Positions 48,270 to 51,753 of a stretch of DNA of 64,000 nucleotides are shown here, in pieces. The notes beneath the pieces are model-generated. The model worked only from the letters and a program-made list of their open reading frames with translations. It did not search any database and was not told where the DNA came from. The stretch spans positions 35,105-99,104 of the forward strand of contig JAMPCH010000002.1 in assembly GCA_023666265.1 (NCBI GenBank), written 5' to 3'. A program made the position numbers and the translations under genes. How positions within the stretch are numbered: the first letter of the stretch is position 1; each line of letters begins with the position of its first letter. This DNA is from Roseburia sp. (GTDB taxonomy: Bacteria; Bacillota; Clostridia; Oscillospirales; Ruminococcaceae).

Positions 48270-48524
48270 ATGTGTAAATTATTCGACGACTGGTCAGATG
48301 AGATCCAAAAATATTGTAAAAGTAAGCATTTCAGCTTTGAAAAAGCGCAACGGCTTTCTCAATGCTGGGGTCGAGATTTCCTCGCCCTCCAACACCACGA
48401 CCCCGAAAAAGGCAAAATGGGCTTACTCGACGAAACGCCCATGCCGCTCGTCTTATTGATCACCGAGACGCCGAACGGGCTCGTTTTTGAGGAGACCGAG
48501 TACACCCGCCAATACCTCACCTAA
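48270..48524 (+). CDS. Small protein paired with the JAMM-like gene
   Basis: 84 residues, Trp- and acidic-rich (MCKLFDDWSDEIQKYCKS, LLDETPMPLVLLITETPNG). Its ribosome binding site (GGAAAGGAG) is the end of the preceding gene, 4 bp between them, so the two are translated together. Could be an immunity or regulatory partner; no family recognised. Confidence 0.65.
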   Translation: MCKLFDDWSDEIQKYCKSKHFSFEKAQRLSQCWGRDFLALQHHDPEKGKMGLLDETPMPLVLLITETPNGLVFEETEYTRQYLT

Positions 48525-48530
48525 CCCCCA

Positions 48531-48566
48531 AAAATATCCCCCTCTCTCGCGAGAGGGGGATATTTT
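48531..48566. terminator. Bidirectional terminator
   Basis: AAAATATCCCCCTCTC, TCGC loop, GAGAGGGGGATATTTT. Confidence 0.9.
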
Positions 48567-48653
48567 ATACCCGTTACGTTATGTACGTCTTGTCTTACCG
48601 CGCGGAGAGCCGCCCTCGGTAAAACGGGTCGTATCGATGACCGATACGCGTCA

Positions 48654-49400
48654 TTAAGAAACAGACATCGTGAGCTTGGGAGAAGTGCCTACGATCAAAC
48701 CTGCCCACTTACCATTAACACTATCGTCTCCGGCTACACCCGCGTTGCTACCGTCCCACTTGTTGGTGGTCGTGGTGATCGCGGTAAGATCGGTCAACTT
48801 TTTAGCCGCTGCCGTTTTATAATCGGCATAAAGATCGCCGAGCTGTGAGGCACTTCCATCGCCTACCGTAGAAGAATCCGCCGTGTAAGCAAGCGCTACG
48901 CAGTGACCCGCCGAAACAAACGCCTCGATATAGCCGGTTTGGATATCCGGGAAGAGCTTCGCGAGGCTGATCGTGATCAGATCGATCCCATTGCCCTTCG
49001 CGTCGGACTTGCTGTTGGTAGACTTGTACTTAGCCGCCGTTTTGACCTCCGTCCACTTTACATCGGAGCCGGAACCGCTGAAGCTATCGCCCATCTTAGC
49101 GCCCGCCTCAATAAGATAGCCGGTCCATTCGCCCTTATCGATCGAGAAGATAAAGGTCGCCGCCGCGCTCGCTCTCTTCATACCGTACTTATTGGTGTCC
49201 GCCTCGGTGAAGAAGTTATCGACCTCCTTCGCGAGGGACGACGCGGTCGAGTCCGCCGAAGTAACGCGCGAGTTCGTTACATAGCCTAACATCGTAGGGA
49301 TAAGGATCGCCGCGAGTACGCCGATGATCGCGATTACAACGATCAGTTCGACGAGGGTAAAGCCTTTTTTGGCTTTAAGCTTTTGGAAAAAACGAATCAT
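48654..49400 (-). CDS. Type IV pilin / pseudopilin-like protein
   Basis: 248 residues. Class III leader MIRFFQKLKAKKG cleaved before Phe (G|FTLVELIVVIAIIGVLAAIL), with Glu5 of the mature protein, then a Ser/Thr/Lys-rich globular domain rich in Gly and Asp. The usual size for a major or minor pilin. AAGGAGG precedes ATG. No prepilin peptidase or assembly ATPase is in the window. A weak promoter-like TTGACC-17-TAATAA overlaps the mini-pilin; otherwise the gene appears to depend on the invertible promoter to its right. Confidence 0.9.
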   Translation of the reverse strand: MIRFFQKLKAKKGFTLVELIVVIAIIGVLAAILIPTMLGYVTNSRVTSADSTASSLAKEVDNFFTEADTNKYGMKRASAAATFIFSIDKGEWTGYLIEAGAKMGDSFSGSGSDVKWTEVKTAAKYKSTNSKSDAKGNGIDLITISLAKLFPDIQTGYIEAFVSAGHCVALAYTADSSTVGDGSASQLGDLYADYKTAAAKKLTDLTAITTTTNKWDGSNAGVAGDDSVNGKWAGLIVGTSPKLTMSVS

Positions 49401-49493
49401 TGTTTTTTTCCTCCTTGTAATAAAAATTTTTTTGTCCCGCGAGCTTAACGCTCCGCTTTTAGGGACGATTTATAAAACCCTTGGCGGGCTTTA

Positions 49494-49625
49494 TTACGAG
49501 AATAATAATAAGAGGTCAAAGGCGATCGCGGCGACGACGCTGATAAACGCGATCACGACGATCAGCTCGACGATCGTAAAGCCGTTTTTGATTTTACGAA
49601 ACCGTATCTTTATTCGCTTTAATAT
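49494..49625 (-). CDS. Mini-pilin ORF with only the leader and N-terminal helix
   Basis: 43 codons reading LKRIKIRFRKIKNG|FTIVELIVVIAFISVVAAIA and ending FDLLLLFS, then TAA. It is the prepilin leader plus hydrophobic helix without any globular domain. A GAGGGGG site lies 8 nt before codon 1, but that codon is ATA, not ATG, so it may be a recently damaged gene or start inefficiently. It is the first frame met by a transcript arriving from the switch region. Confidence 0.45.
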   Translation of the reverse strand: MLKRIKIRFRKIKNGFTIVELIVVIAFISVVAAIAFDLLLLFS

Positions 49626-49631
49626 CGTTAA

Positions 49632-49677
49632 GACCCCCTCTTACAACATAATGTCGTTTATGTTGTAAGAGGGGGTC
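49632..49677. promoter_or_regulatory. Left recombination site of the invertible segment, within a 46-bp palindrome
   Basis: Core 49642-49667: TACAACATAA, spacer TGTCGT, TTATGTTGTA. It is the exact reverse complement of the site at 50008-50033. Inverted arms around a 6-bp spacer are typical of tyrosine recombinase core sites. Here the palindrome extends outward (GACCCCCTCT / AGAGGGGGTC) to 20-bp perfect arms. Confidence 0.85.
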
Positions 49678-49687
49678 GGTTAGGTCG

Positions 49688-49880
49688 CTTTTATTTTTGG
49701 GGAAGGCGGTACAGATCCGCCCAAGATCAGCGCCGAGACGGGCTATTCTTTGGTCTAAAGCCTTATTTTTGACCGCGAACGTTCAAAGCCAATAAAACAA
49801 GCCGCGAAAAACGCGGAAAACGCTTCTTTCGCGGTTAAGGGGCGGACGAGGGGGCGCACACCTTCCCAAAAGGGAAAAAT
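49688..49880. repeat. Dispersed palindromic repeat inside the invertible segment
   Basis: Ends TTTTATTTTTGGGGAAGGCG and GGGGCGCACACCTTCCCAAA match the family; about 190 bp including internal GC-rich hairpins (AAAAACGCGG-type). Confidence 0.55.
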
Positions 49881-49945
49881 TTAAAAAAATCCACAACTTT
49901 TTTTAAGAAGAAGGAATTTTTTTGTAATTTTTTTGAAAAAAGGTG

Positions 49946-49974
49946 TTGACAAAATCGGGAAGCTGTGATATAAT
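49946..49974 (+). promoter_or_regulatory. Promoter inside the invertible segment
   Basis: TTGACA (49946-49951), 17-bp spacer, TATAAT (49969-49974). The RNA would start near 49981 and run through the right recombination site into the antisense strand of the recombinase gene. Confidence 0.88.
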
Positions 49975-50007
49975 ACACCATAGAAAGAGTCGGCGAAGTC
50001 GATCAAA

Positions 50008-50033
50008 TACAACATAAACGACATTATGTTGTA
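50008..50033. promoter_or_regulatory. Right recombination site of the invertible segment
   Basis: TACAACATAA, spacer ACGACA, TTATGTTGTA; exact inverse of 49642-49667. The stop codon of the recombinase gene lies inside the right arm, so inversion leaves the protein unchanged. Confidence 0.85.
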
Positions 50034-50860
50034 TCAAGGATCAGACCGAGCCGATTGATCTGTTTTTCGTGGACCTTCCCGCTCTCGAGCGTATAGATCC
50101 GCGTCGTATTCACGGTCGAATGACCGAGGAGATCGGCGAGGCGGAGGAGGTCTTTTTCGTTTGTGTAAAACGTCCGCGCGAAAAGGTGGCGAAGGTTATG
50201 GGGGAAGACCTTCCCCTCCGCTACCCCCGCCGCCTTACAAAGGCGCTTCATGTCCCGCCAAAGGTTCGAGCGGTCGAGCGGGTTGCCCCGGCTCGTGACG
50301 AATACGCTCCCCGCCGCGATCCCGCGCCTTTTGAGATATTCGCCGAGTAGGCGGCGGAGCTTTAGCGGGATAAAGATCAAGCGGCTTTTACCCTTACAGC
50401 TCACGACCGCCCGCCCGCTTTTCACCGCCTCGACCGTGATAAACCTCAGCTCCGAGACGCGTATCCCGGTCGAACAGATCGTCTGGAGGACGAGCGCGAG
50501 GCGGTCGCCGCTTTTACGCGCGGCGGCGACGAGGCGCTTATATTCCCCGACGCTAAGCTCTCTCTCCTCGGGAAGGAAGACGCGGCGCTGGATCTTAAGC
50601 TGTCTCAGCTTTAGCTCGCCGAGCCCGATAAAATCGAGGAAGCCGTTGACCGCCGCGAGGATCGAATTAACGCTCGCGGGCGAATAGCGCTCGGCGATCG
50701 CCTCTTTAAAGCGGAGTAAGAGCGCCTTATCGAGCGGTCGGTCGCCCGCGTAGTCCGCGAGCTTTTTTATATCACGTGTATATTTTTGGACGGTGCGGCT
50801 CGCGCATTCCCGCTCGGCGAGCGCCGCCGCGTACCGCATCGTTAAGCTGTAAAGTGACAT
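50024..50860 (-). CDS. Tyrosine recombinase (XerC/XerD-like), probable DNA invertase of the adjacent segment
   Basis: 278 residues. N-terminal SAM-like core-binding domain (1-about 88), catalytic domain with all active residues: R134 (TGIRVSEL), K158 (CKGKSR), H221 and R224 (PHNLRHLF), H247 (LLGHSTV), Y256 (TRIYT). ATG at 50860 is preferred (AAAGGA 12 nt upstream; ATG 50872 is too close). The last codons run into the right recombination site. No phage genes are nearby, so it looks dedicated to local inversion rather than phage integration. Its promoter is unclear; it may rely on read-through or a weak site near 50880. Confidence 0.9.
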   Translation of the reverse strand: MSLYSLTMRYAAALAERECASRTVQKYTRDIKKLADYAGDRPLDKALLLRFKEAIAERYSPASVNSILAAVNGFLDFIGLGELKLRQLKIQRRVFLPEERELSVGEYKRLVAAARKSGDRLALVLQTICSTGIRVSELRFITVEAVKSGRAVVSCKGKSRLIFIPLKLRRLLGEYLKRRGIAAGSVFVTSRGNPLDRSNLWRDMKRLCKAAGVAEGKVFPHNLRHLFARTFYTNEKDLLRLADLLGHSTVNTTRIYTLESGKVHEKQINRLGLILDTT

Positions 50861-50885
50861 TTTTATGACCATTCCTTTCCTTATA

Positions 50886-50925
50886 ACAAAAGTCGGCTAT
50901 GGATTTTCCATAGCCGATTTTTATG
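50886..50925. terminator. Terminator of the amino-acid ABC operon
   Basis: AATCGGCTATGG / CCATAGCCGA stem with T-rich sequence on both sides. Confidence 0.8.
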
Positions 50926-50961
50926 TTGTTTTTTGGGAAGTCGTGCGCCGTTACGCGCCGC

Positions 50962-51753
50962 CTATAAGCTCCTAAGCTCCATCGAGTTGGCGAGGAAGGC
51001 TTTGAGCTTGGGGCTTTTTGGGTCGTCGAATATCTCCTCGGGCGAGCCGATCTCCTCGATGATCCCGTCCGCCATAAACATGACGACGTCCGAGACGTTT
51101 TTCGCGAAGGTCATCTCATGCGTCACGACGATCATCGTACTGTCCGACGACTTTAAGCCCTTAATGACCTTTAATACCTCGCCCGTGAGCTCGGGGTCGA
51201 GGGCGCTCGTCGGTTCGTCAAAGCAGAGGATATCCGGGCTCAACATAAGCGCCCGCGCGATCGCGACGCGCTGTTGTTGACCGCCGGACAGCTCACAGGG
51301 ATACGCCCCCGCGCGGTCGGCGAGACCGACCCGCTCTAAAAGCGCGAATGCCTTTTCCTCCAAGTTCTTTTTGAGCGTGGGGAGCGCGTCCTTCTCCGCC
51401 CGCTTTTTCTCCAAAAGCTCGGCGGCGAGGGTCAAGTTCCTTAACACGGTATATTGAGGAAAGAGATTAAACGACTGAAACACCAGCCCAAAGTGGAGGC
51501 GGTTTCGCCGAAGGGCTTTTTCGTCGTGCCGTCGGCGGCTCTCGTCGTCCGAGATCGTCTCGCCGCCGACGACGATCGTCCCGCGATCGGGCGTTTCGAG
51601 GAAGTTAAGACAGCGTAAAAGCGTGGTCTTACCGCTCCCCGACGAGCCGATGATCGAGAGGACAGCGCCCTTATCGAGCCGAAAGTCGATCCCCCTCAAC
51701 ACCTCGTTTTTCCCGAAAAATTTATGTAGGTCACAGACCTCTAAGATCGCCAT
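50962..51753 (-). CDS. Polar amino-acid ABC transporter ATP-binding protein
   Basis: 263 residues, GlnQ/ArtP type. Walker A GSSGSGKTTLLRCLN (about 36-50), Q-loop VFQSFNLFPQYTVLRN, signature LSGGQQQRVAIARAL, Walker B ILCFDEPTSALDPELTGEV and H-loop VVTHEM. Last gene of a four-gene operon; 12 bp from the permease gene. Confidence 0.95.
   Translation of the reverse strand: MAILEVCDLHKFFGKNEVLRGIDFRLDKGAVLSIIGSSGSGKTTLLRCLNFLETPDRGTIVVGGETISDDESRRRHDEKALRRNRLHFGLVFQSFNLFPQYTVLRNLTLAAELLEKKRAEKDALPTLKKNLEEKAFALLERVGLADRAGAYPCELSGGQQQRVAIARALMLSPDILCFDEPTSALDPELTGEVLKVIKGLKSSDSTMIVVTHEMTFAKNVSDVVMFMADGIIEEIGSPEEIFDDPKSPKLKAFLANSMELRSL

What the first reader, a model, noticed from the sequence alone, without database searches (positions are those of the whole stretch)
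48654..50860. Phase-variable switch: recombinase-flanked invertible promoter next to type IV pilin genes
Two identical 26-bp sites (49642-49667 and 50008-50033) lie in inverted orientation, each made of 10-bp inverted arms around a 6-bp spacer (TGTCGT versus ACGACA), the form of a tyrosine recombinase core site. They bound 340 bp that contains a consensus promoter (49946-49974). A complete tyrosine recombinase (R134, K158, H221, R224, H247, Y256) ends inside the right site, and a mini-pilin and a full pilin gene face the left site. Inversion would move the promoter to read into the pilins with a short leader (start near 49694). I know of invertible promoters in gut bacteria; this recombinase-pilin arrangement I do not recognise as described.
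Basis: partly seen in the sequence, partly recalled or inferred. Interest (0 to 1): 0.93.

Follow-up and report, generated by a model that had tools for sequence, protein, structure and literature searches.

The report
Flip-switch for a spare pilus gene
A bacterium carries a second, diverged copy of its main pilus-fibre gene beside a small DNA segment whose promoter points away from the gene, and a neighbouring recombinase would likely flip that segment to turn the gene on; one related genome holds fifteen copies of this recombinase, eleven of them followed by different pilin-type genes, which would make it a library of separately switchable pili.

Summary
Two perfect 26-bp inverted copies of a palindromic site bound 340 bp carrying a 12/12 consensus promoter that points away from the pilin, back into the 3' end of an intact Xer-like recombinase gene: an OFF arrangement. 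The "mini-pilin" is a remnant without a standard start codon. The same layout follows the recombinase in 89 of 100 testable homologous loci, against 2 of 100 in an upstream control. Orientation is OFF in 45, ON in 7, unclear in 37; one pair of related loci carries the segment in opposite orientations, and several contigs break at the site edge, as expected if both orientations coexist. The switched pilin is an 81% identical paralogue of the genome's house pilin, under purifying selection, with change concentrated in residues 87-140. In other families the switch drives pilins again: one genome has 15 recombinase copies, and all 11 with enough flank precede a pilin with a conserved N-terminus and a hypervariable body. 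Recombinase-adjacent invertible promoters in Clostridia are known; my searches listed no pilin repertoire switched this way. No inversion in this genome has been observed.

The parts
50024..50872 (-). Tyrosine recombinase, 282 aa, intact
   Evidence: PF00589 88.4 bits, PF02899 23.1 bits; catalytic residues conserved; NCBIfam best XerA 130.8 bits, below its cut-off of 220
50008..50033 (-). Right recombination site (predicted), 26 bp palindromic, overlaps the recombinase stop codon
49642..49667 (+). Left recombination site (predicted), perfect inverted copy of the right site
49668..50007 (.). Segment predicted to invert (340 bp)
   Evidence: same layout in 89 of 100 testable homologous loci
49946..49974 (+). 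Consensus promoter TTGACA-17-TATAAT, points away from the pilin and into the recombinase 3' end (OFF)
   Evidence: 12 of 12
49802..49816 (-). Terminator-like hairpin inside the segment, reading toward the pilin in the present orientation
   Evidence: region total 3 found, shuffles mean 3.5, so weak alone; an overlapping element is found
49632..49677 (.). Extended perfect hairpin (20-bp arms) around the left site; one side of the extension lies in the segment, so it would be lost on inversion
49494..49640 (-). Pilin N-terminal remnant ('mini-pilin'), no standard start codon
48654..49400 (-). Type IV pilin, 248 aa; RBS AAGGAGG at 49410-49416; paralogue of the house pilin at G000:C23:26114-26851
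   Evidence: PF07963 33.9 bits; 81% identity
50920..50929 (+). Half-site-like TTTATGTTGT upstream of the recombinase
   Evidence: I16; not general in homologues, 4 of 88

Best explanation
A 340-bp promoter-bearing segment between two perfect inverted copies of a palindromic site is predicted to be flipped by the recombinase encoded next to it, which would switch on a diverged second copy of the genome's major type IV pilin. Shown: the anatomy; the OFF direction of the promoter in the assembly; the paralogy and purifying selection of the pilin; the recurrence of the layout. Inferred: the recombinase binds its 10-bp arms, exchanges strands in the 6-bp spacer and inverts the segment. In OFF the promoter would transcribe antisense into the recombinase, and a terminator-like hairpin plus a long hairpin at the pilin-side site would insulate the pilin. 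In ON the promoter would read through a leader of about 294 nt into the pilin, so that some cells assemble or mix in a variant pilin. In relatives the same unit stands before many other, mostly surface or secreted-type genes (by inspection), and in some genomes it is multiplied into a set of pilins that would be switched separately.
For: Inverted site pair (score 15 or more) past the recombinase in 89 of 100 testable loci, against 2 of 100 in the equal stretch upstream and 0 of 100 shuffles. The 6-bp spacer is identical in both sites in 82 of 89, while 78 loci hold 58 distinct spacers. Promoter score 10 or more in 54 of 89 segments, null 7.8%; 12 or more in 14 of 89, null 0 of 1780 shuffles; OFF 45, ON 7, unclear 37. 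L046 and L047, two loci of one genome with recombinases 89.6% identical, carry the segment at 90.9% identity in opposite orientation. Contig ends within 200 bp of the gene: 13 on the 3' side, 1 on the 5' side, of 122; of 11 contigs ending within 130 bp, 6 end within 1 nt of a site edge and one within 4 nt. Terminator-like element toward the target in 25 of 45 OFF segments against 6 of 225 shuffles. Arms covary with recombinase distance (Mantel r 0.29, p 0.0005), spacers much less (r 0.09, p 0.012). Pilin versus house pilin: dN/dS 0.19; DNA homology covers RBS plus ORF only; no promoter-like match on the pilin strand in 48600-51000. PF00482 and PF00437 genes of a pilus machine elsewhere in the genome. 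Pilin switches again in G041, G163 and G106.
Against: No reads or further strains of this species were available, so no inverted molecule is shown here. The scan finds no promoter for the recombinase either, so absence of a pilin promoter is weak evidence; the region's 2 promoter-like sites compare with 1.6 in shuffles. 11 of 100 loci have no site pair at the threshold (three of them score 13-14) and 37 of 89 have no clear promoter call. Of six related but non-duplicate pairs whose segments align over 150 bp or more, five are in the same orientation and one is opposite; the opposite pair belongs to a sub-group whose repeats are not palindromic. Within the genus, among the 9 of 71 genomes with the recombinase, only this species shows the pilin version. 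Some contig breaks (G041, G106) may reflect repeats rather than mixed orientation. The recombinase falls below the cut-off of every NCBIfam model it matches.
Confidence: 0.86

Rival explanations
1. The switch is a fossil: the recombinase or sites no longer work in this strain and the pilin copy is permanently silent.
For: Only the OFF orientation is seen; a pilin remnant lies in the leader.
Against: Both sites are perfect copies, catalytic residues are intact, and the pilin is under purifying selection, dN/dS 0.02 in residues 1-86 at dS 0.52, not expected for a silent gene.
Confidence: 0.08
2. The main product is antisense control: the promoter makes RNA against the recombinase in one orientation and the pilin effect is secondary.
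For: In the 45 loci called OFF, as in the window, the promoter points back toward the recombinase 3' end (OFF is defined by this).
Against: The layout also follows from any promoter flip next to a co-directional recombinase; the ON loci read into a target ORF. 19 of 45 OFF segments carry a terminator-like element toward the recombinase, though its place relative to the promoter was not tabulated.
Confidence: 0.05
3. The gene is an integrase or Xer-type resolvase of a mobile element, and the sites are attachment or resolution sites.
For: Xer-like family; arms resemble the XerD half of dif (recalled).
Against: Sites are a local inverted pair in 89 of 100 loci, which inverts rather than excises; no tRNA in the window; spacers match within loci but are diverse between them.
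Confidence: 0.03
4. The switch acts mainly by a flip-dependent terminator, as in cwpV, with transcription entering from the recombinase side.
For: Extended target-side hairpin (arm 13 or more) in 9 of 45 OFF loci, 1 of 45 if flipped, 0 of 7 ON.
Against: It is a minority feature (and among 37 unclear loci 0 now, 2 if flipped), in the window the hairpin has no T-tract, and the segments carry strong promoters. It may add to promoter flipping.
Confidence: 0.06

Closest known systems
Invertons of gut Clostridia: inverton group 139 with tyrosine recombinase group 35 (PMC11892184; section 8 and passages read)
   Same: Invertons called from reads, 32 of 33 from Clostridia, nearly all with a nearby group 35 tyrosine-type recombinase; probably this family
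   Different: Identity of the family could not be checked (motif in a supplement); 'pilin' has 0 occurrences in the main text
C. difficile cwpV switch with RecV (PMC2784873, passages read)
   Same: XerC/D-type recombinase, short invertible segment, genomic DNA mostly OFF, OFF-specific hairpin at the site junction
   Different: The cwpV promoter lies outside the segment; here the promoter is inside and the recombinase gene adjoins a site
C. difficile Cdi7 with neighbouring recombinase CDR20291_3416 (PMC5903667, passages read)
   Same: Invertible site with its own neighbouring recombinase
   Different: Recombinase, target and site sequence not compared here
E. coli fim switch, FimB/FimE (passages of PMC11868660 and PMC2784873; details recalled)
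   Same: Tyrosine recombinases beside an invertible promoter for a pilus subunit
   Different: Chaperone-usher pilus, not type IV; two recombinases of about 200 aa (recalled)
Moraxella bovis pilin inversion (timeline and reference in PMC11868660, passages read; Piv recalled)
   Same: DNA inversion changes which type IV pilin is expressed
   Different: Inverts the pilin genes themselves with a recombinase of another kind (recalled)
Neisseria pilE/silent-copy antigenic variation (search listing and recall)
   Same: Repertoire of pilins with constant N-terminus and variable body
   Different: Silent copies moved by gene conversion; here each copy seems to have its own promoter switch

Membership tests
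Invertible promoter (inverton) | Inverted repeats bounding a short segment | tested here: met
   89 of 100 homologous loci
Invertible promoter (inverton) | Promoter inside the segment, in one of two orientations | tested here: met
   12/12 promoter; OFF 45, ON 7, unclear 37 of 89
Invertible promoter (inverton) | Both orientations occur in one population | tested here: inconclusive
   Not testable for this species; indirect in relatives: L046/L047, contig ends at site edges
Invertible promoter (inverton) | Expression follows orientation | not testable with these tools
   no RNA data
Tyrosine recombinase | Conserved catalytic residues R-K-H-R-H-Y | tested here: met
   PF00589 88.4 bits
XerC/XerD/XerA housekeeping recombinase | Score over NCBIfam equivalog cut-off | tested here: not met
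   XerA 130.8 of 220, XerD 113 of 329.6, XerC 106 of 335.15 bits
Type IV pilin | N-terminal cleavage/methylation motif | tested here: met
   PF07963 33.9 bits, cut-off 21.2
Type IV pilin | Pilus machinery in the genome | tested here: met
   PF00482 on C44, PF00437 on C44 twice
cwpV-type terminator switch | OFF-specific hairpin with poly-U at the site junction | tested here: inconclusive
   Long OFF-specific hairpin present, no T-tract in the window
Inverton group 139 / invertase group 35 | Same site motif and recombinase group | not testable with these tools
   motif not given in the main-text passages seen

The most novel reading that the evidence does not exclude
Some Clostridia hold a dispersed library of type IV pilins in which every pilin has its own recombinase and its own invertible promoter. 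The switches are kept nearly identical, the pilin bodies are hypervariable, and most are OFF, so that cells of one clone wear different pili. The window is the one-switch form of this system.
Probability: 0.55. Interest if true: 0.85.

Novelty: new variant of a known kind. Interest (0 to 1): 0.68.

Why it matters
It would give type IV pili, an adhesion and host-contact structure, a heritable on/off variation in Clostridia by a mechanism unlike the gonococcal or Moraxella ones, and a dispersed pilin repertoire of which single members can be switched. It also supplies a large, compact recombinase-site family (matched arms, free 6-bp spacer) in which recombinase-site specificity can be tested directly, and a sequence signature (site pair past the recombinase stop) for predicting phase-variable surface genes from assemblies alone.

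Tried and rejected
Mini-pilin as a gene: rejected, in-frame stop and no standard start. Recombinase autoregulation through upstream half-sites: present at 50920 here, but in only 4 of 88 loci against 1 of 88 in a far control and 0 of 88 inside the gene, not general. The third genome match of the site (C1:50704) has no inverted partner in the 3.5 kb fetched and sits in a longer palindrome; terminator-like. Comparing L038/L039 (= L010/L011) for opposite orientation: same orientation. 11 of 100 testable homologues do not reach the site-pair score of 15: L048, L100 and L014 score 13-14, the other eight 11 or less. Literature on type IV pilins behind invertible promoters: searches returned 0 papers, four, forty of which 15 were listed, (Moraxella) 107 of which 10 were listed; apart from the Moraxella pilin-gene inversion, no listed title or abstract describes it.

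Full report
Observation. The site pattern at up to 3 mismatches occurs twice in the window and in none of 100 shuffles; in the assembly only one more match exists, unpaired. The recombinase stop codon lies in the right site. The promoter is a 12/12 match and reads on the + strand, into the 3' end of the recombinase gene on the - strand. The pilin is on the - strand beyond the left site. The assembled orientation is therefore OFF for the pilin. The 'mini-pilin' is a 48-codon open stretch with a pilin motif but no standard start codon, just after an in-frame stop in the site.

The family. Homologues with E of 1e-40 or less are in 9 of 71 genomes of the genus, 112 of 394 of the order and, searched with the alignment, 12 of 398 of the phylum; each count includes the own genome. 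The window's own species has no name in any call. I analysed 128 copies, dropped 6 as duplicates of others (five with identical recombinase DNA, one 99.6% identical), and had 122; 22 lacked flank, and 100 had enough on both sides.

Anatomy across the family. In 89 of 100 an inverted pair (score 15 or more) lies between -60 and +520 of the recombinase stop; the matched stretch upstream gives 2 of 100 and one shuffle of each gives 0 of 100. 11 of the 89 were left out of the site statistics, because the spacers differ or the site is unclear or of another type (L045, L083 and L144 look like chance repeats); 78 remained. In those 78 the inner arm is usually ACATAA (C in 312 of 312 arms, the least constant position T in 263 of 312), and the 6-bp spacer usually begins with T (76 of 78) and ends with A (62 of 78). 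The spacer is the same in both sites in 82 of the 89, yet the 78 loci hold 58 distinct spacers. Arms follow recombinase relatedness (Mantel r 0.29, p 0.0005) more than spacers do (r 0.09, p 0.012), as expected if arms are bound and the spacer only has to match its partner.

Promoters and terminators. A promoter score of 10 or more is found in 54 of 89 segments, null 7.8%; of 12 or more in 14 of 89, null 0 of 1780 shuffled segments. Called by score 10 and a margin of 1: OFF 45, ON 7, unclear 37. Terminator-like elements toward the target are in 25 of 45 OFF segments against 6 of 225 shuffles; toward the recombinase in 19 of 45 against 5 of 225. The target-side site is embedded in a longer perfect hairpin (arm 13 or more) in 9 of 45 OFF loci; with the inner flanks exchanged as inversion would do, 1 of 45 (arm length, Wilcoxon p 0.0035; energy, p 0.033); ON 0 of 7 both ways; unclear 0 of 37 now and 2 of 37 flipped. 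The window has the longest, 20 bp, in a stretch whose fold is 7.9 sd below shuffles. This resembles the cwpV OFF hairpin (PMC2784873, passages), but here it lacks a T-tract.

Signs of real inversion in relatives. L046 and L047 lie in one genome; their recombinases are 89.6% identical and their segments align over 154 bp at 90.9% in opposite orientation. These two belong to a sub-group with another, less palindromic repeat and a second recombinase-like gene as target. Five other related pairs with 150 bp or more aligned (L010/L011, L061/L064, L065/L134, L138/L152, L151/L154) are in the same orientation. Contigs end within 200 bp on the 3' side of the gene in 13 of 122 and on the 5' side in 1 of 122. 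Of the 11 that end within 130 bp, 6 stop within 1 nt of the edge of a site and one within 4 nt. By my reading an inverted repeat of 26 bp alone should not stop an assembler, while a mixture of orientations would; 3 of the 11 are paralogues in G041 where repeats may be the cause.

The pilin. The genome has PF00482 (PilC-type) and PF00437 (PilB/PilT-type) genes on contig C44 and three pilins on C23. The switched pilin is 81% identical over its length to the pilin at C23:26114-26851, and the main DNA similarity runs from the RBS to the stop codon. Similar pilins occur in 46 of 71 genomes of the genus at E of 1e-15 or less. Between the two copies dN/dS is 0.19; it is 0.02 in residues 1-86, and 40 of 67 nonsynonymous differences lie in 87-140 (dN 0.41). 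So the switched copy is kept functional while its middle part has diverged. That region is likely surface-exposed (recalled from pilin structures; not modelled here).

Recurrence with pilins. In the first set a motif filter, which can miss some, finds a pilin behind the switch in 2 of 89 loci: the window and L044 in G041; the others are mainly large secreted-type proteins, polysaccharide-type operons and other ORFs (names by inspection of sequence, not by profile). Following L044, pilins are the targets in 3 of 3 copies of G163 and in the two copies of G041 (of at least 8, full or partial) that reach a target before the contig ends; at one of them, C6, only the last part of the recombinase is on the contig. 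The single copy in G100, of the same family, is not next to a pilin. In G106, of another family, one search lists 15 copies; the other 11 matching genomes of that family have 1 or 2 each at that threshold. Of the 15, 11 have enough 3' flank, and all 11 precede a pilin ORF of 408-544 aa (one, L245, was missed by the stricter motif and found in the others). The remaining four are cut by contig ends before any target. 8 of these 11 pilins and 2 of G163 were scanned: all 10 have PF07963 over its cut-off and no other family over its cut-off. Of 12 G106 segments that can be read, 2 are ON and 10 OFF. Five of these loci have 100% identical switch-plus-leader DNA over 390 bp in the six pairs compared; in these pairs the pilin DNA is 89-98% identical in the first 120 nt, and after nt 180 no similarity is found except a 34-bp stretch in one pair. 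Over the 55 G106 pairs the pilin bodies average 20% identity and the N-terminal 26 residues 86% (table printed before that script stopped). This is a constant-switch, variable-product repertoire.

Known or new. PMC11892184 (section 8 and passages) reports read-supported invertons in Clostridia (group 139) tied to a tyrosine recombinase group; this is probably the same family, which I could not verify. PMC5903667 (passages) notes one C. difficile inverton with a neighbouring recombinase. PMC11868660 (passages) lists the Moraxella pilin inversion. My ten searches (some lists capped) listed no paper on type IV pilins behind invertible promoters; the library holds open-licence PMC papers only, so this is not proof of novelty. 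I rate it a new variant of a known kind: the switch is known in kind, the pilin use and the multiplied pilin repertoire are the new part.

Limits. No reads, no expression data, no second strain of this species. Promoter and terminator calls are consensus matches. Homologues were chosen by similarity to the window's recombinase. Orientation counts come from assemblies, which probably show the major form only.

Noticed in passing
L003, L046, L047 (G001, G092): The first gene behind the flipping promoter is itself a recombinase-like ORF (575 aa in L030), followed in L030 by glycosyltransferase-like genes (by inspection): possibly one switch controlling another.
   Followed up: partly
L014 1363-1392 and 2421-2450 (G022): 30-bp inverted repeats flank the recombinase gene itself, so the invertible segment there would contain the recombinase.
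   Followed up: no
L059 (segment after the recombinase): The inverted repeat is long (score 68) and includes the promoter, so an outward promoter exists at both ends and either orientation would read into the target.
   Followed up: no
L005, L066, L069, L071: Two direct copies of the left site within about 150 bp; direct copies could also allow deletion.
   Followed up: no
L033, L035, L032, L034, L140: The same switch stands before operons that look like SipW/TasA-type fibre genes and before DEAD-helicase plus polysaccharide-type operons (by inspection).
   Followed up: partly
G106, sites of L262, L265-L267, L269-L272: Many switches in one genome share the same arms and spacer, so recombination between loci or action in trans is possible.
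   Followed up: no
G000:C1:50704-50729 (L161): Third match to the site pattern, 2 mismatches, unpaired, inside a longer palindrome; terminator-like.
   Followed up: yes
window 48531-48566: Perfect 16-bp-arm hairpin with A/T flanks between the pilin and the convergent ORF at 48270-48524, a likely shared terminator.
   Followed up: no
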